The notes under the pieces were generated by a model. That model was not told where the DNA came from. It made no database searches and was given only the letters and a program-made list of their open reading frames with translations. The position numbers and the translations under genes are program-made. 64,000 bases of DNA from Carboxydothermus hydrogenoformans Z-2901 (GTDB lineage: Bacteria > Bacillota > Z-2901 > Carboxydothermales > Carboxydothermaceae): the NCBI RefSeq assembly GCF_000012865.1, contig NC_007503.1, forward strand, positions 1,462,001 through 1,526,000. The letters run 5' to 3'. Position 1 is the stretch's first letter. Every line of letters begins with the position of its first letter. This document shows positions 22,409-57,388 of the stretch, piece by piece.

Positions 22409-22495
22409 GCCGAGATGGTGGAACTGGCAGACGCGCCGGACTCAAAATCCGGTGGGGTAACACCCGTGCGGGTTCGACTCCCGCTCTCGGCACCA
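22409..22495 (+). tRNA. tRNA-Leu, anticodon CAA (prophage attachment gene)
   Basis: Acceptor arms GCCGAGA and TCTCGGC with ACCA encoded. Anticodon stem CCGGA/TCCGG encloses CTCAAAA, giving anticodon CAA (reads UUG). A long variable arm (GTGGGGTAACACCCGT) fits class II tRNA-Leu. From the last base of the 5' anticodon stem onward the sequence is repeated at 57333-57388, so the 3' part of this gene was supplied by the integrated phage and the tRNA remains functional. Confidence 0.95.
22440..22495 (+). repeat. attL core (56 bp)
   Basis: Identical to 57333-57388 over 56 bases, from the end of the 5' anticodon stem through CCA. The sequences differ on both sides of these limits. Confidence 0.92.
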
Positions 22496-34273: not shown

Positions 34274-35224
34274 TTAAATTTTGTGAATGAATGCTACCAT
34301 ACGAATCGCTTTCGGTTCATAGACACGTTCCCAGTTGGTCCCGTTCTCAAGTTCGGTATTGCTGGGGTTGGGTGCGCCTACATACTTAACACCCCGTGGG
34401 TGTAAAATGAAGGTTTTCCGGGTAATCAGGTAATCTTCGCCAGCCAGACTGTCCCGGTCGGTTTCAGTTGGTACAAAGCCAACAGGGTTGCCGTTACCGT
34501 ATCCGATAGCCCCCTGGGCGAAGATGAAAGTGGTAAATACACCATTAGTGGTATCAACAGGGCAACTATCATCTACGATTACCCGTTTGCCCATATAGGT
34601 TTTAATTTGAGGCATATTCTCAGACGGCTGAATAGTTTGGATAAGATTTTGTTTTGAAAGCGCAGCTTCAACTGCAGAATGCATTACTACTGCTGTAAGC
34701 TTTTCTTTGGCATCTCCCAGCTTTTGCAAAGCATCAATAAAAGTCGCGCCAGTAAACTTGGCAGCATCTCCGGTATTAGCAGAAATATCGTGTAAATTAG
34801 TTGCCATTGTCGGAGCGGCGAATACACCTTTGAGGATACTGATTAAAGCCGCTTGCATCCGCCGTCTCCAGTAGTCAGCTACAAGGTCGCCAATTACCAG
34901 CATTGGATCGTCGCCGGCTAAAGCTGCGGCAAGGTCATTAGCTCCCCATGCACGACCCCGACGGAGAATTACTGCGATATCTTGTCCAGCAGTAATCTTG
35001 CCAGGTGTTAATGCCCCCTGGTCGGTTAAAACCTCGTCTTCTCCGGTAAGGTCGTTCCAGAAGGGCATATTGACAACATGGGACGAGCTGGAGGCCAAGC
35101 GGTCAAACTCTTCACCGGTAGAGAGAATACCGCTTTGATAAAGTTCAGAAAGTTCCATGGTTCTTTGTATCACATACGGATTAAACACCTCAGGAATAAT
35201 CACATCAGCGATTTTGGTAGTCAT
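34274..35224 (-). CDS. Major capsid protein
   Basis: 316 residues, beginning MTTKIADVIIPEVFNPYVIQ. The early segments (SELYQSGILSTGEEFDRLA, VVNMPFWNDLTGEDEVL, ALTPGKITAGQDIAVILRRG) and ADYWRRRMQAALISILKGVF near residue 118 are typical of coat proteins in SPP1/P22-like Firmicutes phages. It follows the scaffold gene by 21 nt with its own ribosome site. It should be the most abundant virion protein. Confidence 0.9.
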   Translation of the reverse strand: MTTKIADVIIPEVFNPYVIQRTMELSELYQSGILSTGEEFDRLASSSSHVVNMPFWNDLTGEDEVLTDQGALTPGKITAGQDIAVILRRGRAWGANDLAAALAGDDPMLVIGDLVADYWRRRMQAALISILKGVFAAPTMATNLHDISANTGDAAKFTGATFIDALQKLGDAKEKLTAVVMHSAVEAALSKQNLIQTIQPSENMPQIKTYMGKRVIVDDSCPVDTTNGVFTTFIFAQGAIGYGNGNPVGFVPTETDRDSLAGEDYLITRKTFILHPRGVKYVGAPNPSNTELENGTNWERVYEPKAIRMVAFIHKI

Positions 35225-35245: not shown

Positions 35246-35836
35246 TTACTTTACTCCCGCTTCAGCCATGAGTTTTTGAGCCAAAGCAGGATTTTCTTTG
35301 AGAATTTTACCTTGTAAAGTAAGGTTGAAAGTTTCCTTACGCCAGGGATTTTGTATCCCGCTATTTGTTGTTGTCGGGTTAGTTCCTCCCCCAATTGGTT
35401 TTGAGGCTATGCCAAGCAGTTTTTTGAGCGCTTCCGCATCCTGCCGGATTGATTCTTCATCTTCTCCGAAGATGCGTCCGGCAAGGTCTAACGGTAAGCC
35501 CAGTTCAGTCAATACCTTCACTTTAGTTGCCTGGATTTGAGCTTCTTTGGTCTCACGTTCTTTTTCCTGGAGTATTCTTTCATACTCCTGGAGTTTGGCC
35601 TGAAGTTTCTCCTGTTCGGTCATCTGGGCTTCCTTGAGTTTTTGCAGTTCTTCTGCCGCCTTCTTTAGCTCGGCGTAGTCTTTGAATTTTTCCCTTTCCC
35701 GCTTGAGGCGTTCAGCGATAATCCGCTCTAACTCCTCTTGCGTAAAGGTTTTAGTTTCCGCCTGTTTGTTGTTTTGATTATCCTGCCCGGCGTCAGCAGG
35801 ATTGGAATTGGTTTTGTTTAAAGCATCATCATTCAT
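35246..35836 (-). CDS. Capsid scaffolding protein (DUF4355/GP20 type)
   Basis: 196 residues dominated by a long charged coiled coil (about 33-110; RIIAERLKREREKFKDYAEL), with a Gly/Thr/Asn-rich hinge (IGGGTNPTTTNSGIQ) and a short C-terminal helix ending QKLMAEAGVK. This is the standard layout of scaffold proteins, whose C-terminus binds the coat protein. It lies directly before the capsid gene. Confidence 0.88.
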   Translation of the reverse strand: MNDDALNKTNSNPADAGQDNQNNKQAETKTFTQEELERIIAERLKREREKFKDYAELKKAAEELQKLKEAQMTEQEKLQAKLQEYERILQEKERETKEAQIQATKVKVLTELGLPLDLAGRIFGEDEESIRQDAEALKKLLGIASKPIGGGTNPTTTNSGIQNPWRKETFNLTLQGKILKENPALAQKLMAEAGVK

Positions 35837-35917: not shown

Positions 35918-36208
35918 CTAAAGCGCAGTTAAAATTTTTTCTTTAATGGTTTCACTGCGGAATACCTTCCCATCATCAAAAGTTAGGCTTAACTCCATAA
36001 ACATAACCCCATCTGTTTTCAGATCATCTGCCTCCATATCGTAGTAAACCTAATTATTTACCTTATCAACGACGCACTCCCTCGTCCATTTCTGCCCCCG
36101 CAACTCAAAAGTAATGGTGGCGCTTTCAAGATATTGCAGCGATATTGTATTCCCATCATTGCCCTTGAAGCGAAATATCAACCGCGTTCCTTTTTCGCCG
36201 ACCTTCAT
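35918..36208 (-). pseudogene. BppU-like N-terminal domain protein with internal TAG
   Basis: A 97-codon frame starts MKVGEKGTRLIFRFKGNDGN, one base after the stop codon of the fibre gene, and ends ...KEKILTAL at 35918. Codon 53 is TAG (36052-36050). Across that stop the homology reads on smoothly as VYYDMEADDLKTDGVMFMEL and LTFDDGKVFRSETI, the pattern of phage baseplate upper-protein N domains. It is therefore a single gene cut by one nonsense codon. I see no gene in 35837-35917. Confidence 0.65.
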
Positions 36209-36209
36209 C

Positions 36210-36650
36210 TTACGCCACCACCTCCTTTTGAGTTATATCCAGTCGCAGTTCGTAGACCTTCTGGTCATCCAGTCGCAGTTCATAAACTTTATAAGTCAAT
36301 GGCCTTATCCTGCCGTCGTCTACCCGTGCCGGTTTTATCAGCGTCAGCGTCACGGTAGAAACTACCGCCATTATCTTCGCTTCTCCACTCGGGATAGCTT
36401 CATTGGCTTCTGCGGTAATATTGCTTGCCTGTACTTCTATCCTTACCCCGGCCATTACTCTTGGTGCGGTTGCTATCGTCGTGGTTGCCGCTGTTGGTGC
36501 GATTATCACAGCTTCCTTCTGGCCGGTTACTGCTGGTGCATTTGCATTTGCCGTCGTCGTTGCCGCTGGTGCCGGAATTGTTGCCTTTACTGCCACATTC
36601 GGGCTTATTGCTTCTGCTGTCGCTTCTGTTATTGAAGCGCTTACTACCGC
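36210..36650 (-). pseudogene. C-terminal continuation of the repeat fibre after an in-frame stop
   Basis: In the same frame as the fibre gene upstream and separated from it by a single TAA (36653-36651). The sequence after the stop (AVVSASITEATAEAISPNVA) continues the same Ala/Thr/Val repeat, as do PAVTGQKEAVIIAPTAATTT and PRVMAGVRIEVQASNITAEA. The end (LTYKVYELRLDDQKVYELRLD) has a short duplicated YELRLD segment. A GTG at 36596 could start a 128-residue protein but has no Shine-Dalgarno, so this is probably the lost C-terminus of a gene of about 427 codons. Confidence 0.65.
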
Positions 36651-37493
36651 TTACCCAGCGCCCAGTATTGCCGGTGCCGGTGCTTGCGCTGTCGCGGTTG
36701 CGCTTGTGGCCTGTGTCTTGGCTTCGTTGCTTACCGCTGGTGCTGTTGCGCTTATATCTACCGTTGCTGCTGGTACTGCCACCGTTACAGGCACTACCAC
36801 AACCGGACTTATCGCGTCTCCGTTTACTCCGGTGTTTACCGCCGTTATTACCGCATCCACTTTCACCGCTGGGCTAATTGCGGTTATCTGTGTATCTGCG
36901 ATTGCTCCGGTTATGGCAGCGTTCTGCTGGGCCGTTATTGCCGGTGCTAATGCTGCATTTGTTGCCGCGGCCACAACTGCATTGACGGTTACCGGAGTAG
37001 CGGAAGCACCACTTAAAACAATTCCCTCTACCCGGCTATTATAACTTCCGCCAAAACGAAATCGTGCGTAAACCTCATATTCGTCTACAACTTCCTTTTC
37101 TGTATAGCGATAAAATGTCCACGTTGACGCTTCAAGGTTGGTTTTGTTTAGCTGTTCGGTGATAAATCTACTACTACTATTTAAGCTAAGTTTAACTGTT
37201 TCGGTTATAACGATTGCGTCTGTTGTGGCGAGTGTTCGGGCTGGACAGTTCCAAGTGGCAACCTGAACCCCACTTCCTGCAAATTGCCTACTGACCGTCG
37301 CAACGTTTGAACCGATTAGGGTTTCCACTCCGTTGCTCGCACGAACATAAACCATACTACTCCAGATTCCGGGATAATCTATGTCAACAACTTCAACATA
37401 TTCTGATGCCGTGCTGTTTGTGGTTTTAAACGCCTTTGCTGTTAACCCGTTAACCGTCAGGTTATCGTTCGTATAATACCTTATTTCAGCCAT
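36651..37493 (-). CDS. Head-fibre-like protein with Ala/Val/Thr repeats (truncated by in-frame TAA)
   Basis: 280 residues. The first 165 or so are beta-rich (MAEIRYYTNDNLTVNGLTAK, TASEYVEVVDIDYPGIWSS, YEVYARFRFGGSYNSRVEG). From about 170 on, units of roughly 22 residues repeat with the pattern A-x-A-x-(S/A)-P-A/V-V, for example ISPAVKVDAVITAVNTG and ISPVVVVPVTVAVPA, which suggests a beta-helical or triple-helical stalk. It ends at a TAA inside the repeat. It lies between the head genes and the scaffold, so I infer a capsid-attached fibre. Complementary-strand frames here are shadows of the GC-rich repeat. Confidence 0.6.
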   Translation of the reverse strand: MAEIRYYTNDNLTVNGLTAKAFKTTNSTASEYVEVVDIDYPGIWSSMVYVRASNGVETLIGSNVATVSRQFAGSGVQVATWNCPARTLATTDAIVITETVKLSLNSSSRFITEQLNKTNLEASTWTFYRYTEKEVVDEYEVYARFRFGGSYNSRVEGIVLSGASATPVTVNAVVAAATNAALAPAITAQQNAAITGAIADTQITAISPAVKVDAVITAVNTGVNGDAISPVVVVPVTVAVPAATVDISATAPAVSNEAKTQATSATATAQAPAPAILGAG

Positions 37494-37506
37494 TTATATC
37501 ACCGCC

Positions 37507-37872
37507 TTATCCGGTGATGCCTAAGTGTTCTTTCGTCACCCCGTAAGTGTTGTAAAGCCATTGCCAATCTTCCTCGGTGCTAATTTCCTTTAAGACCTTT
37601 GTTTCGTCTATCTCTCCGCTGTAAATTACTGCTATTACCAGCACAGGAACCGGGCTGTCGGCTAATTCCTCCGGTGTTGGGAAAAAGGTAATTGTGCCGT
37701 CTGCCGCCGGGTATCCGTGCTTGCAGGTCATGCTTACGCTTATATTTATTTCTTGCTCTATCATCCCGGTGTTCGGGTCTTGAATAAGGTTTATCTCCCA
37801 CGGGACGCATCTTGGGACAAAACCATATCGTGCGGAAGGGACTGCTTTTACTTGGCTAATTACTACCCGCAT
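37507..37872 (-). CDS. Phage head-fibre cluster protein of unknown function
   Basis: 121 residues starting MRVVISQVKAVPSARYGFVP. The middle (INISVSMTCKHGYPAADGTITFFPTPEEL) is beta-rich. I do not recognise the family. It lies 13 nt before the repeat fibre gene and shares its transcript, so it may belong to the same appendage. Confidence 0.55.
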   Translation of the reverse strand: MRVVISQVKAVPSARYGFVPRCVPWEINLIQDPNTGMIEQEINISVSMTCKHGYPAADGTITFFPTPEELADSPVPVLVIAVIYSGEIDETKVLKEISTEEDWQWLYNTYGVTKEHLGITG

Positions 37873-37884
37873 AATTTAGCCCCC

Positions 37885-38322
37885 TTATGCCGCTGTAATG
37901 GTAAATATTCCGCCTGCGTCCCATTGAATGGTAAAGTTTCCGTTACTGCTGGCTACATCCGCCCCAAAGTCAATATATCCCAGTAGTAAACTGGTCGCCG
38001 CGTTGCCAGTGTCTTTGTATATTACCGCATACCGGGCCGTTATCGTGCTGTTTGCCCAAGTAACGTCGTCGGCGTCTAAAATCGTTTTGTTGTTTGCGGC
38101 GTCATAGGTGATTGTCTTGTTCGCTAATGTTGCGCCGCCAGCTGTATAACCCGTCCCTGCAACTTCTCCAGTTACACTACTTTTAAACTGGTGAGTGTCT
38201 TGGTCGGGCGTGTAGGCGCTGGTGCAAAGCATTACCTTAATCGTGTCTCCTGTCCAGTTTACTCCGTTGCCGCTTAAAATATTTTTAAGTGCTTGGCCAT
38301 ACCATTTGGCTGTTACCGCCAT
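37885..38322 (-). CDS. Phage head decoration / fibre-base-like protein
   Basis: 145 residues, beta-rich: MAVTAKWYGQALKNILSGNG, IKVMLCTSAYTPDQDTH, then TITYDAANNKTILDADDVTW and ARYAVIYKDTG. The pattern W-Y-G-x-x-L ... V-M-L ... Y-x-P-D-x-D-x-H is one I recall from conserved Firmicutes phage structural proteins of unassigned role. It is the first gene after a terminator, with ribosome site AAGGAGGAG, so it starts a separate transcription unit or is read through. Confidence 0.6.
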   Translation of the reverse strand: MAVTAKWYGQALKNILSGNGVNWTGDTIKVMLCTSAYTPDQDTHQFKSSVTGEVAGTGYTAGGATLANKTITYDAANNKTILDADDVTWANSTITARYAVIYKDTGNAATSLLLGYIDFGADVASSNGNFTIQWDAGGIFTITAA

Positions 38323-38420: not shown

Positions 38421-38455
38421 ATAAAAATACCACCTCAACCGCTTTGGTTGGGTGG
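38421..38455 (-). terminator. Intrinsic terminator after the immunity-like gene
   Basis: On the minus strand ACCACC-CAACC pairs with GGTTG-a-GGTGGT (11 bp, one bulged A) around AAAGC, followed by ATTTTTAT. It begins 4 nt past the stop of the 101-residue gene. Confidence 0.82.
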
Positions 38456-38458
38456 TTA

Positions 38459-38764
38459 TTAATTCACTTGTGGGTTTAGTTTTCCTTCGACAACTTCATT
38501 AAGATACCACCACCAATGAGTTTTAGGCTTATTTTTTTGTTCCGCCTCCAAAAAACCCTTTAACACCTTATAAAATAATGGTGCCCTTTCAACGAGAATC
38601 TTATCATATTCTTTAACTTTTTCCTTTTCGTCATCCGAAAAAGTACTCATTCGTTCTTCGATAATATCCCTGCCGTTGAGTTCATATATATGTTCAAATG
38701 GGCTTAAATCCCATTCTCCTTTTACAAATAGCTCATAATCTTTAATTAACTTATCATTGTCCAT
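38459..38764 (-). CDS. Candidate immunity protein for the MuF-linked toxin
   Basis: 101 residues, acidic and mostly helical: DKLIKDYELFVKGEWDLSPF, then DDEKEKVKEYDKILVERAP and THWWWYLNEVVEGKL. I do not recognise the family. Its ATG overlaps the end of the MuF-toxin gene by 11 nt, so it is translationally coupled, and a strong terminator follows at once. Both this gene and the toxin part are much more AT-rich than their neighbours (38521-38580 has 18 G/C of 60). Small size, acidity, coupling and position are those of an immunity protein. The role is inferred. Confidence 0.55.
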   Translation of the reverse strand: MDNDKLIKDYELFVKGEWDLSPFEHIYELNGRDIIEERMSTFSDDEKEKVKEYDKILVERAPLFYKVLKGFLEAEQKNKPKTHWWWYLNEVVEGKLNPQVN

Positions 38765-40187
38765 TGGCTCTCAACTCCTTTATGGTACCCATATATTTCA
38801 TACCCTCTTTTTTAATGTATTCCTCATAACTCATTTTATCAATTTTAAATGCAGTATCGATTATGCCATCTTGCCCAATTATCGCAATCCATTCTTTATC
38901 CCCAAAAACATAATATTTTTGTTTAAAACCCTTTTTATAATATAAATATACTTCATTATTAGGATTAGAGCATAATTCACGTATTTTATGGTTATACTCC
39001 TCTAACCCCCAACTTTCAGGAATTTGCCCAAGCCTTTTTCTTTTCCTAAGATGTTCAATATCTTTGTTTTTCTTCCAACTTGGGCCATTATTGATAATGT
39101 TTTCTGTTATAATTATAACATTGTATTTATCTTCATTCAATTGATAATGCTTAATTATTTGGCCATCAACCCCAACAGGTTTTTTCCCCGTGTATTCATA
39201 AGTTTTATTTAGTAATTTATACGCTTCCATTTTATCTTGTAAAGAATAATTTTTACTTAATAATACTTCCCTTGCCCTTCTCCTGTTAGTCGCTATTGTC
39301 ACCGCATCCCGCATTTCTTTGTATGCTTGCTTTTCTTCTTCGCTTCTTGGGTCTTTCGTGAGTGAGGTATTACTATATTTCTCCACTTTTTCCGCGTCAG
39401 GGTCAAGTTCTCTTATATAAGGTTGCAGGGTATGCCGGCAGTTTGGATGAATTGGCGGCCTGTATTCGTCCGTCAACTTTGGATAGCGCTTATCTTGGCC
39501 GGAGATGCTAAATACCTTACCCTGGAGCGGAGCACATTTCTCACAGGTAGGATAATGCGTCGTTATCTTCACCAAATCAAGTCCCGCTTCTCGGCAGGTG
39601 TTTATCGTGGCCGCGCTTGCCGCTTCCCTGGTAGTCGTTCTGGCCACCATTTCTGCGTAGCTATCTAACCGCCATTTTCTCCCCAGCTTATCCACAAAAG
39701 CTGTTTGTCCCTGGTCAAGTAGCCGCTGAATCACCCTCTGTTTCATATCCTTTATCGTGGTACCGCTGGCCATTTTGCGTCCGGTTTCTTCTAATGCCAC
39801 CTGCCGGAATACATCGTTAACTCTTCGCCCAATAAACTGGAACGATTCGTGCATACTCGATACCATGTTCTGGGCTATCACGTCTATTGCCCTTTGATGA
39901 ACTTGGGCAAAGCTGGGGTTTTCTTTTACTGCCATTCCCAAGCTGTTAAGGTAAGCCCATGTTTCGGCCGAGGCCTGCGAATACACTTGCCCTATTACCT
40001 GCTGTACCCATTTTCGCGTTTCTTCATCAAGCTGGTTTAGGATGTCGTAAACTTCCTTGAGCATATCCTTCCAGTAGCTTATTGCCTGCCCTTTGGCTTC
40101 TTTGGTGATTATGATTTGCAGGATTTCCTCAAAGCCCCGGCGGTAAAGTTCAATAAGTTGTTGGATTAATTTTTCATCCAATGGCAT
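38754..40187 (-). CDS. MuF minor head protein fused to a C-terminal candidate nuclease toxin
   Basis: 477 residues. Residues 1-275 are a complete SPP1 gp7/MuF head protein, including ARTTTREAASAATINTCREA and the Cys/His signature HYPTCEKCAPLQGK...HPNCRHTLQPY. After a charged linker, about residues 330-477 form a separate domain ending YVFGDKEWIAIIGQDGIIDT followed by AF. The strands around KYNVIIITENIINNG and this W-x-x-x-x-x-x-x-G-x-I-x-T-A-F ending resemble barnase/EndoU/ColicinE5/RelE-type (PBECR) phage nucleases. MuF proteins fused to polymorphic toxins are known in temperate phages. Composition shifts sharply at the fusion (38881-38940: 15 G/C of 60; 39661-39720: 28 of 60). Confidence 0.75.
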   Translation of the reverse strand: MPLDEKLIQQLIELYRRGFEEILQIIITKEAKGQAISYWKDMLKEVYDILNQLDEETRKWVQQVIGQVYSQASAETWAYLNSLGMAVKENPSFAQVHQRAIDVIAQNMVSSMHESFQFIGRRVNDVFRQVALEETGRKMASGTTIKDMKQRVIQRLLDQGQTAFVDKLGRKWRLDSYAEMVARTTTREAASAATINTCREAGLDLVKITTHYPTCEKCAPLQGKVFSISGQDKRYPKLTDEYRPPIHPNCRHTLQPYIRELDPDAEKVEKYSNTSLTKDPRSEEEKQAYKEMRDAVTIATNRRRAREVLLSKNYSLQDKMEAYKLLNKTYEYTGKKPVGVDGQIIKHYQLNEDKYNVIIITENIINNGPSWKKNKDIEHLRKRKRLGQIPESWGLEEYNHKIRELCSNPNNEVYLYYKKGFKQKYYVFGDKEWIAIIGQDGIIDTAFKIDKMSYEEYIKKEGMKYMGTIKELRANGQ

Positions 40188-41629
40188 TATTCTTCACCGC
40201 CAGCATTAGACGGCGTTATTTGCTCTGGTTGTTGTATCGTCGGCTTAAATACCAACGGTACCTGTGCATTTGCCTCAGCAGTTATCCGCATAAGTTCTTC
40301 TCTCAAAGTATCCGCTTCAAACTGGAATAATCGCCGTATTGCTGTTTCTCGGCTTTCCAGCCCATTTTGTACCAGTATGGAATGAATTTCCGCTTGTTCT
40401 TTGTCGTCCTGCGGTAGGCCGTCGTTCCAGGTTATCTCGATATTTTCCAGCTTCACAGCTCCCGGCTTGCCCTGGGCTACTTCAAGCTCACTCGCAAGCC
40501 GGAGAACTTTCTTGAGCGCCGGGTCAAACCGCATTCTAATTCTATTTACTTTTGCCAGCGGGGCCATCATAAGGCGACGGAGTGCACTTCCACTTTCGGC
40601 TAACCCAGCTTTAAGCTGCCCAAACGCCGCAGGTGAAGTTTCGCTTAGAATGTAAAGTTGTTCCATCAAAATCTCAATATGCTTAAATGCAGCTTCAAGC
40701 TGGCCATCCCAGGTGACGTAACCCGGTGGCTTTTCGTCCGGTCCTACGGGAAAGTACTTGCCACCACCTCGGAATGACCATTCGCCAGTTTTAGGATCTT
40801 GCTCCAGCGCCGTATCCGGACCATACATGTTTGGATCCGCGTGCTTGTCAAGGATTCTGCTTATTTGCGCTACTCTTATCTCCAGTTCTTGAATTATGCT
40901 GTCCAAATCCGAGTAATCGTCAATACCGTGGACACGGTCAGAAGTGACAATGTTGTTTACCGGCACTATTAGGAAGTCATCCACTCCAGTTAAAACTTCT
41001 TCCTCCTCCAATAGCCCGGCAATTCTGCCATCTTTAAGCGCATATCTTCGAGTAGTGATTTTCCCTTTCTCGTGAATTTCGGCAATCAAATACTGCTGTT
41101 TTTTCTCGCCCAGCAAAGTCGAAGCGGTTTCTTCAACCACATAAGCCAGGACATGGGCCACAATCTCTTTCACATTTTCCGGCTTCACTACCGGAAACCA
41201 TACCGCCGGTTGCTGGGCCTCAATGATTCCCCGCTTGTCGTAGCGCACCTTAAAGAGGCCCGTCCCAAAGCGGCTTGTATCTAAAACCACTTCATAGCCC
41301 ACATTATAAAGCTGGTTTTCTTTGATTAACCGCTCCAAATTTTGCTGCTCCGGGCTATTCCTGTCGCCCGCCGATATTCTCGGAGGTTCGCCCAGAAGCA
41401 GGTCTGCCCAAAGTGTGCTCAGTCGCTTAGGCCAGTTTAGGATTATCTCCAGCGTTGCCGCTTGGTCATTCCGGAGCAGTTTAATCCACTGCGAATAAAC
41501 CTGGTCGTGCTTGCCCTCGAACAGTTTCCGGTTGTTGTCGTAAAGTTGAAGCCTTTCCAGTTCTGTCGGCGGCGGCCATTTATGGCCTACCGCAAGAAAA
41601 TCTAAGCTTGTCAGCAAAATCATCACCAA
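40187..41629 (-). CDS. Phage portal protein (SPP1 gp6-like)
   Basis: 480 residues forming the dodecameric ring for DNA entry. Helix-rich N-terminus, LFEGKHDQVYSQWIKLLRND near residue 34, NWPKRLSTLWADLLLGEPPR near 65, and the stem/wing region LNRI-like GLAESGSALRRLMMAPLAKV near 345 match SPP1/phi29-type portal proteins. It lies between terminase and the MuF protein, with 7-nt and 1-nt junction overlaps. Confidence 0.88.
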   Translation of the reverse strand: MVMILLTSLDFLAVGHKWPPPTELERLQLYDNNRKLFEGKHDQVYSQWIKLLRNDQAATLEIILNWPKRLSTLWADLLLGEPPRISAGDRNSPEQQNLERLIKENQLYNVGYEVVLDTSRFGTGLFKVRYDKRGIIEAQQPAVWFPVVKPENVKEIVAHVLAYVVEETASTLLGEKKQQYLIAEIHEKGKITTRRYALKDGRIAGLLEEEEVLTGVDDFLIVPVNNIVTSDRVHGIDDYSDLDSIIQELEIRVAQISRILDKHADPNMYGPDTALEQDPKTGEWSFRGGGKYFPVGPDEKPPGYVTWDGQLEAAFKHIEILMEQLYILSETSPAAFGQLKAGLAESGSALRRLMMAPLAKVNRIRMRFDPALKKVLRLASELEVAQGKPGAVKLENIEITWNDGLPQDDKEQAEIHSILVQNGLESRETAIRRLFQFEADTLREELMRITAEANAQVPLVFKPTIQQPEQITPSNAGGEE

Positions 41630-42888
41630 CCTTTTGGTTTGTCTACCACCGTTCTATTTCGTTCAACCATGTCATTTTCTAAAGCATATCTAACAGCATC
41701 AATGCTGTGGTTGTTTTTATCGGGGAAATCGGCTTTGAAGTTGCCGTTGTTATCTTTTTCTAACTCGTAATTCAAAAACTCCCTGGCTGTATTCGGGCAT
41801 CTTTCCGGGTCTATCACTATTTCCTCTAAATCCTGTAAAAACTTAATCCCAAATTCAACACTTCCAGGGCCTTTCTTTGCACCGTATACTTTCAGCCCAT
41901 AACTCTTTAACTCGGCAATAGATTTAGGTTCTGCACTGTCTGCGGTTATTGGTGAGTTTAATTTGTTTTCCTCCTTGATTAACTCAGCCAGGCGCCTGTT
42001 TGATAAACCAACCTGATGTATTTCATAAAAAATAAAAAGCCGCCTCCGAGTGCGGTCATAATGGCAAACTGTATAATGAACGGGGTCTACTGCATAACCC
42101 CAGTCAATTCCCCGGCGGATGCGGTCAAATGCTTTTATTTCATCATCGGTAATTTTTCGAATTGTAATGTTACTAAAAATTTCCCCACCAGTTCCGGTAA
42201 TTTCCCCTAAATACTCATGTCGGTAAGCTCTCTCGTTAATCCGTTTTAAATGCTCTGCTTCAATTAAAAACTGTTCCCCAAGCCATTCACGAGGAACAGT
42301 TAAATATGTGCTGTGATGAACTTTCCTGTCTGGTCTCTCAATCAATATCTCTTCGTTTACCCACGCATTTACTCTGTTAGGTGGATTATAAGTGTAAAAT
42401 ACAACAAATTGTTCTCCACCCCGCATCAATGATTGATTGATGATTCGTATTTCCTCCATGCCGTTAAACTCGTCAACTTCTTCATACCAAATGAACTTGA
42501 TATAGCCTTTTGATACTTTCGTAGATCTGATTTTTTTAGGCTTATCAGCACCTCTAAAAAGTATTTTTTGCCCCGTTGGGATATATGTCATCTCCATTGG
42601 GTTATGTTTAATATCCCAATAGTCGCTTACTTTCAATTTCTCAATTGCCCAAATCAATTGTTCAAAGACACTATCCTTTAGCGTTTCTTTAACTTTTCTC
42701 AAAACCACTGCATTAGCGTTAGGGTCTTTCATCATCCCAAGTATTATCTCTATGCTTGCAAAAGAGGATTTACCGCTGCCACGTCCACCTTTTAGCCAAT
42801 AGTGTGTATACCTGTTGTGTTTTATATCGTTGTGTATTTCATAAAAGCTCGGTGCTATTAATTCACTGAGCTTAATTTTCTCCATCAT
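41623..42888 (-). CDS. terL: Terminase large subunit
   Basis: Packaging ATPase-nuclease of the PBSX/SPP1 type. Walker A GGRGSGKSS is near residue 34, Walker B-like YIKFIWYEEVDEF near 134, and the nuclease acidic residues appear in RRGIDWGYAVDP near 255, TADSAEPKS near 310 and NNHSIDAVRYALE near the end. The ATG at 42888 has GAGGAT upstream; the frame is open nine codons further. It overlaps terS by 17 nt. Confidence 0.92.
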   Translation of the reverse strand: MMEKIKLSELIAPSFYEIHNDIKHNRYTHYWLKGGRGSGKSSFASIEIILGMMKDPNANAVVLRKVKETLKDSVFEQLIWAIEKLKVSDYWDIKHNPMEMTYIPTGQKILFRGADKPKKIRSTKVSKGYIKFIWYEEVDEFNGMEEIRIINQSLMRGGEQFVVFYTYNPPNRVNAWVNEEILIERPDRKVHHSTYLTVPREWLGEQFLIEAEHLKRINERAYRHEYLGEITGTGGEIFSNITIRKITDDEIKAFDRIRRGIDWGYAVDPVHYTVCHYDRTRRRLFIFYEIHQVGLSNRRLAELIKEENKLNSPITADSAEPKSIAELKSYGLKVYGAKKGPGSVEFGIKFLQDLEEIVIDPERCPNTAREFLNYELEKDNNGNFKADFPDKNNHSIDAVRYALENDMVERNRTVVDKPKGW

Positions 42889-43324
42889 TGTTATCATCCT
42901 CAATGTCGTCAACAATTACCACGCCCATATTGCCGCTAACGTTGACCTTTTCGGTAAACAGTGCATATCTTTTGCCCAATAACTCTGCTGCTTTTACTCT
43001 ATCTTTTGCTGATACTTGTTTTTTGATAATTTTTGCCTCGCTTATATAATCCCCCTTGTTTTCAGTAACAACAACCTCCTCGGTTTCTAATCCCCGCATA
43101 ACCCTTGTAAGAAATTCCAAGACTTCATCCTGTGAAGCAATGCGTTCGTTGTCTTTCTGCTTCATCTTTTCTTCGATGTAAATCCTAAGTTTTACTAAGT
43201 TTTGGCTTCCAATAACATCTAAGTTTTTTCCTTTATATCCTGCCCTTCTTGCTGCTTCTGCTGCATTTCCTGTCTCGATATAGTAGTCAATAAACCTTTT
43301 TTGCTTTTCTGTTAATTTTGCCAC
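42872..43324 (-). CDS. terS: Terminase small subunit
   Basis: 150 residues. The N-terminal helix-turn-helix (LTEKQKRFIDYYIETGNAAE, ARRAGYKGKN) recognises the packaging site, and the middle helices (SAKDRVKAAELLGKRYALF) drive oligomerisation, as in Terminase_2 proteins. The tail is acidic (VDDIEDDNNDGEN). Confidence 0.9.
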   Translation of the reverse strand: MAKLTEKQKRFIDYYIETGNAAEAARRAGYKGKNLDVIGSQNLVKLRIYIEEKMKQKDNERIASQDEVLEFLTRVMRGLETEEVVVTENKGDYISEAKIIKKQVSAKDRVKAAELLGKRYALFTEKVNVSGNMGVVIVDDIEDDNNDGEN

Positions 43325-51467: not shown

Positions 51468-51490
51468 TTTGGTAAATAGAGGTGATTCTG

Positions 51491-52255
51491 GTGAACTTCG
51501 GGCAAAGACTTCGACAATTGCGTACAGAAAGAGATTTAACTCAGGCAGAATTGGCAAAATTGCTTTCAATTGGGGAATCCACAATATCTTTTTATGAATC
51601 AAATAAACGGCAGCCAGATTTCGATACCCTCATTAAACTCTCAAATTTTTTTAATGTTTCAATAGATTTTCTTCTTGGTCGCACTGATGAAAGTAATAAA
51701 TTTATTCAAAACACCAAAACTATCCCTTTACTTGGGACAATCCGTGCAGGCATTCCTTTATTAGCTGAAGAAAATTGGATTGAGGAGATTGCATTACCAG
51801 CAGGTATAAAAGCGGATTTTGCCTTACAAGTTGAAGGAGAATCAATGATTTATGCTGGGATCTTCCCTGGAGATATTGCATTTTTCAAACAAAGCGAAAC
51901 AGCAACTAATGGACAAATTGTTGCTGCTGGAGTTGTAGAAGAAACTTGGAAAGCGAATCTTAAATTTTATGTGAAAACAAATGGAAAAGCTTTCCTTAGG
52001 TCAGCAAACCCAAAATACAAAGATATTGAGATTACACCACAACACAAAATAATTGGGATTATGACTGGGCTTGTTCGCCATAATCCCCCTTCAATGACAG
52101 ATTATATTTCACTAGTAATTACTAAAGACGAATTTGAAAATTCTTGGATTGAAACAATTGAAACAGCTTTATCTCTTGGAATGTCACCTATTCATGTAAA
52201 ACAATTAATTGAGATACAAGCTACTCTTTCAAAAATGATCAAACCCAATGAGTAA
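51491..52255 (+). CDS. LexA/CI-like phage repressor with S24 autopeptidase
   Basis: About 254 residues. The N-terminal XRE domain (FGQRLRQLRTERDLTQAELA) binds the operators. The cleavage site Ala-Gly is in LLGTIRAGIPLL near residue 83, the catalytic Ser in LQVEGESMIYAGIFPGD near 113, and the general-base Lys in the EETWKANLKFY region near 150. It should self-cleave when RecA is activated, giving SOS induction. The GTG at 51491 has GAGGTG 6 nt upstream. A C-terminal extension of about 55 residues goes beyond the peptidase fold. Confidence 0.9.
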   Translation: MNFGQRLRQLRTERDLTQAELAKLLSIGESTISFYESNKRQPDFDTLIKLSNFFNVSIDFLLGRTDESNKFIQNTKTIPLLGTIRAGIPLLAEENWIEEIALPAGIKADFALQVEGESMIYAGIFPGDIAFFKQSETATNGQIVAAGVVEETWKANLKFYVKTNGKAFLRSANPKYKDIEITPQHKIIGIMTGLVRHNPPSMTDYISLVITKDEFENSWIETIETALSLGMSPIHVKQLIEIQATLSKMIKPNE

Positions 52256-55939: not shown

Positions 55940-56066
55940 TATTAATATTATACGCCATTATCCAAAAAAAATCCTTCTTTTTTGAAAAATTTTTATGTTA
56001 AATTTTTTGTTAGTGGGGAATTTTTTATTTTCTTTTCTTTCGAACATTTGTTTTGGAGGTGTTACT

Positions 56067-57182
56067 TTGCGCGGACACATAAGAAAAAGAGGCAATTACT
56101 ATTCGGTCGTTCTCTACTTAGGTAAGGATGAAAACGGCAAGAAAAAATACAAATGGATTGGAGGATTCAAAACCAAAAAAGAGGCCGAGAAAGTTTTGGC
56201 GGAAATGATAAACAAGGTAGAGACCAACAATTTTATATTCCCTGAAAAGATTACCTTGAAGGAGTTTTTGAATTACTGGTTAGAGAACTATGTCCGTCCC
56301 AACCTCTCACCTACTACTGCTTATGGCTACGAGGCCATTATTAATTTACACATTATTCCTTTTTTCAAAAACATCGAGCTTCAAAAAGTACGGCCAATTG
56401 ATATTCAGCAGTACTACAATTCAAAAAGGGATGAGTTATCAGGGAAAACGCTATTGCAGCACCACCGGATACTACATAAAGCGTTTGACTTTGCTATGAA
56501 ATTGCAATTAATCCCTAATAACCCAATCGACTTTGTCGATAGCCCGAAAGCTAAGAAGTATAAAGCAAAAATCCTTGATTTGAAAGAAATTAAAACCTTG
56601 CTAAACGCTTTAAAAGATACTGACTTAGAAGTTCCAATAAACTTAGCACTTTCATTAGGTCTAAGACGCGGCGAATTGCTTGCTTTAAAGTGGGAAGATG
56701 TTAATTGGGAAGAAGGTACGATCCAAATTAGAAGAAACTTGGTCCGGGCAGGCACGAAACTAATTTTAAAAGAACCTAAGAGCGAAACCAGTATCAGGAC
56801 CTTGAAACTTTCTAAAACACTTCTAACCATGTTAAAAAATCACCGCAAAAAACAAATAGAACTTAAACTAATGCTTGGCAATGAATACAAAGACACTGGA
56901 TTTATTTGTTGTAAAAACAATGGTGAAATGATAAACCCAAGCACTTTTAGCCATCAATTCTCTGATTTCCTAAAAAAGCACGGGCTTCCAGACATTCGTC
57001 TGCATGATCTGCGACATACAAACGCCACACTAATGCTCAAAAGTAATATTCCTGCCAAAATTGCAAGCTCCAGGCTTGGCCACTCAACAGTAGCCATCAC
57101 TCTTGACTTATATTCGCACGTTTTAACCGACATGGATGAAGAAGTCGCAAATAAAATTGATGACATCATTTACCAAAAATAA
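56067..57182 (+). CDS. int: Tyrosine-type phage integrase
   Basis: 371 residues. Arm-binding AP2-like N-domain (RGHIRKRGNYYSVVLYLGKD), SAM-like core-binding domain (KEFLNYWLENYVRPNLSPTT) and catalytic domain with Arg in LGLRRGELLALKW, HDLRHT, LGHST and the nucleophile in YSHV. TTG at 56067 with GGAGGTG 4 nt upstream is the best start; the frame upstream lacks a ribosome site. It reads toward attR, 150 nt away, and should integrate the phage at tRNA-Leu(CAA). Confidence 0.93.
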   Translation: MRGHIRKRGNYYSVVLYLGKDENGKKKYKWIGGFKTKKEAEKVLAEMINKVETNNFIFPEKITLKEFLNYWLENYVRPNLSPTTAYGYEAIINLHIIPFFKNIELQKVRPIDIQQYYNSKRDELSGKTLLQHHRILHKAFDFAMKLQLIPNNPIDFVDSPKAKKYKAKILDLKEIKTLLNALKDTDLEVPINLALSLGLRRGELLALKWEDVNWEEGTIQIRRNLVRAGTKLILKEPKSETSIRTLKLSKTLLTMLKNHRKKQIELKLMLGNEYKDTGFICCKNNGEMINPSTFSHQFSDFLKKHGLPDIRLHDLRHTNATLMLKSNIPAKIASSRLGHSTVAITLDLYSHVLTDMDEEVANKIDDIIYQK

Positions 57183-57332: not shown

Positions 57333-57388
57333 ACTCAAAATCCGGTGGGGTAACACCCGTGCGGGTTCGACTCCCGCTCTCGGCACCA
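57333..57388 (+). repeat. attR core (56 bp, partial tRNA-Leu)
   Basis: Identical to 22440-22495, the 3' part of tRNA-Leu(CAA) including CCA. It lacks the 5' half and is not a functional tRNA; this copy marks the displaced host 3' end. Confidence 0.92.

What the first reader, a model, noticed from the sequence alone, without database searches (positions are those of the whole stretch)
38459..40187. Head protein carrying a candidate toxin, with an overlapping candidate immunity gene
The gene at 38754-40187 is a normal MuF head protein for its first 275 residues and then a second domain with a barnase/RelE-like (PBECR) look. A small acidic gene overlaps its stop by 11 nt and is followed by a strong terminator. 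Composition drops from 28/60 G/C (39661-39720) in the MuF part to 15/60 (38881-38940) in the toxin part and 18/60 in the small gene. MuF proteins with polymorphic toxin domains are known in temperate phages. This C-terminal domain and its partner may be a new toxin-immunity pair delivered with the virion or used against competitors.
Basis: partly seen in the sequence, partly recalled or inferred. Interest (0 to 1): 0.85.

Follow-up and report, generated by a model that had tools for sequence, protein, structure and literature searches.

The report
Phage head protein with toxin tail
A resident virus of a bacterium carries a head protein whose swappable tail looks like an RNA-cutting toxin, with a likely protector gene beside it; the general design is known, but this toxin and protector belong to families without a name in the libraries searched.

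Summary
A 477-residue MuF/minor-capsid-2 head protein (38754-40187, minus strand) ends in an A+T-rich domain of about 140 residues. An acidic 101-residue gene overlaps its stop by 11 nt; a hairpin terminator follows. The pair lies in the packaging block of a temperate prophage bounded by a 56-bp repeat at a tRNA-Leu gene. The tail is a swappable cassette: four other types of phage locus share the head domain (53-79% identical) but not the tail, and two viral contigs have the tail (48-49%) plus a homologous small gene behind a head protein without blastp similarity. No Pfam, NCBIfam or PHROGs family convincingly matches tail or partner. A moderate-confidence model of the tail resembles colicin D, colicin E5 and CDI toxins (BECR fold), with a conserved His in an early helix and Thr/Ser in the last core strand. 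The partner is predicted to be a four-helix bundle, of a family marked by a WWW motif. Best reading: a new BECR-type MuF toxin with its cognate immunity protein, a new member of a known kind. Toxicity, target, binding and virion delivery are untested. Side finding: orphan copies of the immunity gene sit beside or inside CRISPR arrays in two species.

The parts
38754..40187 (-). MuF-type minor head protein with C-terminal toxin-like domain (477 aa)
   Evidence: ORF; PF06152 E 3.5e-36, TIGR01641 E 5.9e-11, phrog_4611 minor head protein E 1.6e-54
39318..40172 (-). Phage_min_cap2/MuF part, residues 6-290; sequence shared with relatives continues to roughly residue 335-350
38757..39182 (-). C-terminal domain (residues 336-477), predicted BECR-fold RNase toxin, exchanged as a cassette
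   Evidence: scanned alone it has no convincing PHROGs or NCBIfam match and none in Pfam (residues 277-477); relatives; model; fold matches; swap table
39051..39053 (-). codon of His379, invariant in 6 aligned tails; candidate catalytic residue in an early helix
38853..38855 (-). codon of Thr445, Thr or Ser in 6 of 6 aligned tails; candidate catalytic alcohol in the last core strand
38459..38764 (-). putative cognate immunity gene (101 aa, acidic, predicted four-helix bundle, P-K-T-H-W-W-W motif)
   Evidence: homologues; alignment; model; dN/dS 0.12
38754..38764 (-). 11-nt overlap of the two reading frames
   Evidence: sequence
38422..38456 (-). hairpin with T run after the small gene, terminator-like
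   Evidence: z -5.6
40187..41629 (-). portal protein
   Evidence: phrog_533 E 5.8e-42
41623..42915 (-). terminase large subunit
   Evidence: phrog_3717 E 1.2e-60
34274..35224 (-). major head protein
   Evidence: phrog_247 E 3.2e-121
51482..52255 (+). transcriptional repressor, CI-like
   Evidence: phrog_4 E 3.2e-35
55995..57182 (+). integrase
   Evidence: phrog_1 E 1.7e-84
22440..22495 (+). 56-bp direct repeat at the end of tRNA-Leu(caa), left prophage end
57333..57388 (+). second copy of the 56-bp repeat, right prophage end

Best explanation
This is a MuF polymorphic toxin of a temperate phage together with its cognate immunity gene. The N-terminal part binds the portal and places a few copies inside the capsid (inferred from SPP1 gp7). 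The C-terminal cassette is a metal-independent RNase of the BECR fold that works like colicin D/E5 and CDI tRNases, probably cutting tRNA or another structured RNA with His379 and Thr445 as the main candidate residues (fold and residues predicted; target inferred). It enters the cell with phage DNA and slows or kills cells that lack the partner, or buys time while lysogeny is established (inferred). The 101-residue acidic protein made from the overlapping gene binds the basic nuclease and blocks it, protecting the lysogen and sister cells (inferred).
For: Temperate prophage with a 56-bp att-like repeat, integrase and repressor, the gene directly after portal. MuF domain. Same head domain, other tails: L024 (protein identical to L025; DUF6883 tail), L027, L026, L053 at 79, 67, 60 and 53% head identity. 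Same tail behind another head-morphogenesis protein: L043/L044 (phrog_1657 E 3e-81 and 7e-78), tail E 3e-38 and 2e-37, partner E 5e-18 and 5e-16, no blastp hit of the head part. All 5 full-length close tails found (window, L023, L043, L044, plasmid L061) are directly followed by an overlapping homologue of the small gene. Tail model: helices, four strands, helix and strand. Foldseek PDB ranks 1-5 are colicin D structures (prob 0.91-0.99, best E 0.019; 1tfk and 1tfo are titled only ribonuclease with inhibitor, that they are colicin D is recalled). VIA-align rows 1-14 (Z 7.4-4.3) are all toxin or ribonuclease entries: CDI toxins, colicin D, colicin E5, one toxin-antitoxin toxin. Among viral models, two minor capsid proteins (prob 0.85, 0.89) and a phage protein named colicin D (prob 0.85) appear in the first 17 rows, all at E above 0.03. 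His and [ST] kept in 6 of 6 aligned tails, the configuration PMC5512222 gives for PBECR (passages). dN/dS about 0.1 for both genes. Basic tail, acidic partner.
Against: No experiment. The model rests on 3 sequences with mean pLDDT 69.3, and its sheet part only 60-82; Foldseek has no PDB or viral hit below E 0.001, many viral rows in between are unrelated or unnamed, and Z 7.4 is in the range the tool calls common for models without a clear match. The sequence profile finds no nuclease in the PDB and no Pfam PBECR or colicin D family rings. The small protein's fold has no convincing PDB match. The distant NrS-3 tail has a following gene without the WWW motif. The complex was not modelled. Presence in the virion is by analogy only.
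Confidence: 0.78

Rival explanations
1. The tail is an RNase-fold effector of the phage's own life cycle: injected early to cut host, phage or CRISPR RNAs and help take-over or counter-defence, not a weapon against competitors. The small gene keeps it silent in the lysogen and during assembly.
For: PMC5512222 (passages) argues this for PBECR domains and suggests CRISPR RNA as one possible target. Orphan partner genes lie beside or inside CRISPR arrays in two species.
Against: The tail is exchanged for dissimilar tails between close phages, as expected of polymorphic toxins rather than of a fixed life-cycle function. The same cassette stands outside a head gene on a plasmid.
Confidence: 0.12
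2. The two genes act as a toxin-antitoxin addiction module that merely sits at the end of the head operon: the tail only poisons cells that lose the prophage.
For: Overlapping toxin-partner order with the partner downstream, and orphan partner genes elsewhere.
Against: The toxin is fused to a head protein in 4 of 5 full-length close members (window, L023 with a shortened head part, L043, L044), and no DNA-binding family was recognised in the partner, a plain helical bundle in the model.
Confidence: 0.05
3. The tail is a structural or DNA-binding extension of the head protein and the small gene an assembly chaperone.
For: Basic tail, acidic partner; helical bundles occur among chaperones (one search lists flagellar chaperones, Z 3.6-3.9).
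Against: Head domains 53-79% identical carry dissimilar tails, so no particular tail is needed for the head. The same cassette sits on a plasmid without a head gene nearby, and partner genes persist without the toxin.
Confidence: 0.05

Closest known systems
MuF polymorphic toxins (Jamet et al. 2017, PMC5576092)
   Same: MuF N-terminus, variable C-terminal domain, small downstream ORF, temperate phage, next to portal and terminase
   Different: This tail convincingly matches no named toxin domain in Pfam, NCBIfam or PHROGs
PBECR domains (phage Barnase-EndoU-ColicinE5/D-RelE nucleases, PMC5512222, passages)
   Same: Fusion to MuF, His in the first helix plus C-terminal Thr/Ser, predicted metal-independent RNase
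   Different: No match to Pfam's models at E up to 10; a separate sequence family whose 5 full-length close members all have a WWW-motif partner
Colicin D / ImmD
   Same: First Foldseek matches in the PDB (1tfk, 1v74, 5znm); toxin with an immunity protein
   Different: The Tox-ColD pattern [KH]K and Hxx[ED] (PMC3482391 passage) is not kept: this family has HxxKR; it is fused to a head protein
CDI toxins CdiA-CT of E. coli O32:H37 (PDB 8ey4) and Klebsiella pneumoniae 342 (6cp9)
   Same: VIA-align rows 1 (Z 7.4) and 12 (Z 5.2); the Klebsiella toxin is described as BECR with its immunity protein over the active site (PMC6851490 passage)
   Different: Delivered by a contact-dependent cell system, not by a virion; identity over the alignment only 17% and 11%
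Apk2 and Bxa MuF toxins (PMC12226406, PMC11699363, passages)
   Same: Tested MuF toxins of prophages with adjacent immunity genes
   Different: Their toxins are (p)ppApp synthetase and ADP-ribosyltransferase, not a predicted RNase; they have two immunity proteins

Membership tests
MuF polymorphic toxin family | MuF/minor capsid domain at the N-terminus | tested here: met
   PF06152 E 3.5e-36, TIGR01641 over its cut-off; PF04233 in hmmscan 27.8 bits, below its cut-off of 29.6, but 31.5 bits in the genome search
MuF polymorphic toxin family | C-terminal domain exchanged between otherwise similar proteins | tested here: met
MuF polymorphic toxin family | small ORF (<150 aa) directly downstream | tested here: met
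   101 aa, 11-nt overlap
MuF polymorphic toxin family | carried by a temperate phage in the packaging module | tested here: met
MuF polymorphic toxin family | tail is toxic and the partner neutralises it | not testable with these tools
   needs expression
BECR-fold RNases | N-terminal helical segment followed by a four-stranded meander | tested here: met
   prediction only, mean pLDDT 69.3: helices 25-38, 46-56, 66-78, strands 83-89, 95-100, 104-109, 113-119
BECR-fold RNases | structural match to solved members | tested here: inconclusive
   colicin D prob 0.99 but E 0.019; Z up to 7.4, below 8
PBECR (PMC5512222) | His in the first helix and Thr/Ser near the C-terminus | tested here: met
   His379 (second predicted helix of the modelled piece) and Thr445 (fourth strand); 6 of 6 aligned tails keep His and Thr/Ser
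PBECR (PMC5512222) | sequence match to a Pfam PBECR model | tested here: not met
   no such hit at E up to 10 for the window protein, nor at E up to 1 in the 19 other proteins scanned; only PBECR2 was verified to be among the models, and it rang in none of the 14 control genomes
Tox-Colicin D | [KH]K and Hxx[ED] pattern | tested here: not met
   the six aligned tails have HxxKR; pattern from PMC3482391 passage
Tox-Colicin D | ImmD or Imm64 partner | tested here: inconclusive
   no Pfam or NCBIfam hit of note for the partner; weak fold matches only, none of them ImmD

The most novel reading that the evidence does not exclude
The tail is an RNase that enters with the phage and disables RNA-guided defence (crRNA or its precursor), and hosts have answered by keeping the phage's own immunity gene beside or inside their CRISPR arrays as a protein shield for the defence locus. 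In two species of one genus an orphan immunity gene starts 42 nt after a CRISPR repeat, in one of them just upstream of cas4-cas1-cas2.
Probability: 0.06. Interest if true: 0.85.

Novelty: new member of a known kind. Interest (0 to 1): 0.5.

Why it matters
PMC5576092 counted 191 putative MuF toxins (section 7), but PMC11699363 (passages) says that before Bxa only the Apk2 proteins had been characterised and that the biological role of MuF toxins is unknown. A compact predicted nuclease-immunity pair from a temperate prophage, with close relatives behind another head protein and on a plasmid, is a good system for testing whether head-borne toxins act in the infected cell. The WWW-motif immunity family is also a handle for finding further toxins: in the loci examined it follows four other tail types that resemble neither the window's tail nor one another by blastp (L042, L045, L050, L052/L053).

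Tried and rejected
Close-relative scans with the tail alone found nothing in IMG/VR, GTDB contigs or phage records, nor did the two-row alignments; the tail profiles later returned only L043, L044's contig and one partial contig. The partner alone found nothing in phage records and one plasmid place at E 1, not accepted. The five-row partner profile led to L043-L045. The two other genomes of the window's genus lack this head domain (1 of 3, the own one).

Whole genomes: one search gave 31 of 398 at E up to 0.1; as tail relatives I accept only the own genome and G004. Short matches in G004 (second place), G051, G190 and G389 cover the end of the shared head part and led to the swapped tails; the rest are short or weak and were dropped. 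One search gave 12 of 398 at E up to 0.05, again only those two convincing. One search gave 12 of 398 for the partner: I accept G000, G004, G120, G114, G263. One search gave 14 of 397 (same phylum; G000 is not among its rows): I accept the other four plus G078, G199, G252, G276. G252 and G276 match only half of the model (E 2.7e-5, 3.8e-5), so their membership rests largely on the WWW motif.

Profile-profile comparison: the tail profile reaches L061 (prob 99.6) and the Nitratiruptor phage NrS-3 head protein (prob 90.4), against at most 0.4 in 60 shuffles. It does NOT reach the tails of L042, L045, L050, L052, L053, L024, L026 or L027 (prob 0.2 or less), so I do not claim that those are the same toxin. 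By eye several have a Lys-His motif, only a lead.

PDB sequence searches found no nuclease and no relative of the partner. ImmD did not appear for the partner model. Weak PADLOC matches (tail region PDC-M04B E 0.0048, partner a DRT-associated model E 0.0027), PHROGs excisionase (E 0.041) and NCBIfam NF005028 (E 0.025, far below its cut-off) were taken as chance. With the whole protein, phrog_4728 (head morphogenesis) reached into the tail to residue 431; the tail alone did not match it. Promoter-like sites (12 found, 5.4 +/- 3.0 in shuffles) may reflect A+T richness. 142 CRISPR spacers of the two arrays were compared with eleven sequences; the best of 720 matches is 16 of 36 nt, no convincing protospacer.

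Literature: searches. None of their listings named this pair, but only the held open-licence library was searched, no preprint library was held, and most listed papers were not opened.

Full report
WHAT IS THERE. The window lies in a 2,401,520-bp single-contig genome; that size equals my recollection of Carboxydothermus hydrogenoformans Z-2901, which no call confirms. Within it is a temperate prophage of about 35 kb, from a 56-bp direct repeat at the 3' end of tRNA-Leu (22440-22495) to its second copy (57333-57388). It has integrase, repressor, terminase, portal, major head protein, tape measure and endolysin. Directly after portal comes the MuF gene 38754-40187, then, overlapping its stop by 11 nt, the small gene 38459-38764, then a stable hairpin with a T run.

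THE HEAD PROTEIN AND ITS TAIL. Residues 6-290 match Phage_min_cap2 (PF06152, E 3.5e-36). The last 140 or so residues, scanned alone, match nothing convincing in PHROGs or NCBIfam (best E 0.041 and 0.025), nor do residues 277-477 in Pfam (best E 0.63). They are sharply more A+T-rich than the head part, 30.6% against 46.3% G+C, as is the small gene.

THE TAIL IS A CASSETTE. The window head domain is 79% identical to that of prophage L024 (whose protein is identical in L025), 67% to L027, 60% to L026 and 53% to L053, while none of these shares the window's tail by blastp or profile comparison. L024's tail is DUF6883 (E 4e-24), followed by a small DUF4926-like gene (below Pfam's cut-off). In L027 an IS21-like element lies between head part and tail (by eye). 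Conversely, two IMG/VR contigs (L043, L044) carry head-morphogenesis proteins (phrog_1657, E 3e-81 and 7e-78) with no blastp similarity to the window's head part, yet their tails are 48-49% identical (E 3e-38 and 2e-37) and are followed by an overlapping homologue of the small gene (37-38%, E 5e-18 and 5e-16). A third contig (L064/L078) holds part of the same tail. On a Rossellomorea plasmid the tail stands as its own 128-residue gene, followed with a 4-nt overlap by a homologue of the small gene, in a stretch of 8.3 kb with no annotated phage head gene. Genome G004 has a 5'-truncated MuF gene with this tail (73%) and partner (74%) among genes that by eye do not look like phage genes. So in all 5 full-length close members the tail and the small gene travel together; the head part does not.

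THE SMALL GENE'S FAMILY. I accept 14 loci (window, L023, L040-L045, L050-L053, L061, L082). In 5 it follows the window-type tail; in 5 it follows another tail or tail remnant (L042, L045, L050, L052, L053; L050 is only a weak head-protein match); in 4 I saw no toxin gene beside it (L040, L041, L051, L082). The nine aligned members share an invariant Trp-Trp-Trp near the C-terminus, in 8 of 9 shortly after a Pro. The eight for which I computed it are acidic, pI 4.5-5.4. The window protein is predicted as a four-helix bundle with pLDDT 86.4, without a convincing match among solved structures. The Nitratiruptor phage NrS-3 head protein has a distant tail of the same family (prob 90.4 against at most 0.4 in 60 shuffles), but its following gene lacks the motif.

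WHAT THE TAIL MOST LIKELY IS. AlphaFold2 with three sequences gave mean pLDDT 69.3: 80-92 in ten-residue blocks over residues 31-80 (the helices), 60-82 over the sheet and C-terminus, below 50 for the first 23 residues. The order is helices, a four-stranded sheet, then a helix, a strand and a helix. Foldseek's first five PDB hits are colicin D chains (best E 0.019, prob 0.99). VIA-align rows 1-14 are all toxin or ribonuclease entries: the E. coli O32:H37 CDI toxin (Z 7.4, 82 residues, rmsd 2.7), colicin D (Z 6.0-6.8), one toxin-antitoxin toxin, colicin E5 and other CDI toxins; the first unrelated row has Z 4.2, tied with row 14. Among viral models, hits include two minor capsid proteins and a phage protein named colicin D, none with E below 0.03. 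These values alone are not conclusive. They gain weight because the family keeps a His in an early helix (His379; HxxKR in 6 of 6 aligned tails) and Thr or Ser in the last core strand (Thr445; 6 of 6), the arrangement described for phage BECR RNases (PMC5512222, passages). The range ends put His379 within a few residues of colicin D 608-611 and Thr445 near 677-679; no residue-level alignment was available. The colicin D clade's Hxx[ED] pattern (PMC3482391, passage) is not kept, so I call it colicin-D-like, not a member.

MECHANISM. Shown here: gene order, overlap, cassette exchange, co-inheritance with the partner, low dN/dS (0.11 and 0.12 against G004; 0.12 and 0.09 between L043 and L044), and prophage context. 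Predicted: fold and active-site candidates. Inferred: capsid targeting through the portal, as reviewed for SPP1 gp7 (PMC6316719, passage), entry with the DNA, RNA cleavage, and neutralisation by the acidic partner. MuF toxins as a class were proposed either to influence the lysogeny decision or to serve as weapons (PMC5576092, abstract); which applies here is open.

WHAT IS NEW. The class is known. The tail and partner families are unannotated in the libraries searched, and no listing named this pair. Jamet et al. note MuF proteins whose C-terminal extensions have no known domain and leave open whether these are toxins (section 7); this is a good case for one.

SIDE FINDING. In G120 the orphan immunity gene starts 42 nt after the last repeat of an array with 85 repeats in the fetched stretch (84 exact), and cas4-cas1-cas2 follow (cas4 by Pfam, cas1 and cas2 by eye). 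In G403, another species of that genus, a frame-broken copy, also 42 nt after a repeat, lies in a 1005-nt interval between exact repeats, with a second small ORF and a DUF4926-like remnant (by eye); another interval of 232 nt holds a further small ORF. Only 2 of 9 genomes of the genus have the gene. Both copies keep what look like the last codons of the toxin gene just upstream, in the overlapping frame, so the toxin was probably lost and the protector kept. The similar upstream DNA suggests one ancestral event, so this may be accident.

Noticed in passing
L040 8187-8564 (minus); L082 6222-7286 (minus): Orphan copies of the immunity gene starting 42 nt after a CRISPR repeat (G120, upstream of cas4-cas1-cas2) and inside a CRISPR array between exact repeats (G403, frame broken), each retaining what look like the final codons of the lost toxin.
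   Followed up: partly
L082 6222-7548 (minus): Gene-bearing intervals of 232 and 1005 nt between exact CRISPR repeats, the larger also holding a DUF4926-like remnant (by eye), the likely partner of the DUF6883 tail seen on sister prophages.
   Followed up: partly
L023 6390-7791 (minus): A 5'-truncated MuF gene with the same tail and partner, both open, among genes that by eye do not look like phage genes, in a genome that also has a prophage with a different tail.
   Followed up: partly
L024 5492-7095; L025 6110-7713: Sister prophages carry a DUF6883 tail on the same MuF domain followed by a DUF4926-like small gene with a 4-nt overlap: a probable second toxin-immunity pair; one paper in the library mentions either DUF.
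   Followed up: partly
L027 5071-8217: An IS21-like pair of genes (by eye) lies between a window-type MuF gene and its tail (weakly RadC/JAB-like).
   Followed up: no
window 36050-38322: Several genes between the terminator and the scaffold-like gene (35246-35836) that the sister prophage L024 lacks there; 36651-37493 codes for an Ala/Val-rich protein without PHROGs match.
   Followed up: no
L062 2840-4590 (Nitratiruptor phage NrS-3; NrS-2 alike): Distant relative of the tail on a head morphogenesis protein of a phage from a hydrothermal vent bacterium, with a following small gene that lacks the WWW motif: possibly the same toxin fold with another immunity protein.
   Followed up: partly
L042 5494-7298; L045 3478-5309; L050 687-1863; L053 13-1665: Other head-protein tails followed by WWW-motif genes; no sequence link to the window tail or to one another was found; several contain a Lys-His motif.
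   Followed up: partly
L043 841-2394; L044 3452-5005: The head parts of these two toxin carriers also match a PHROGs family annotated as pilot protein for DNA ejection (phrog_21401, E 7e-74 and 1.5e-76), which would fit entry of the protein with the DNA.
   Followed up: no
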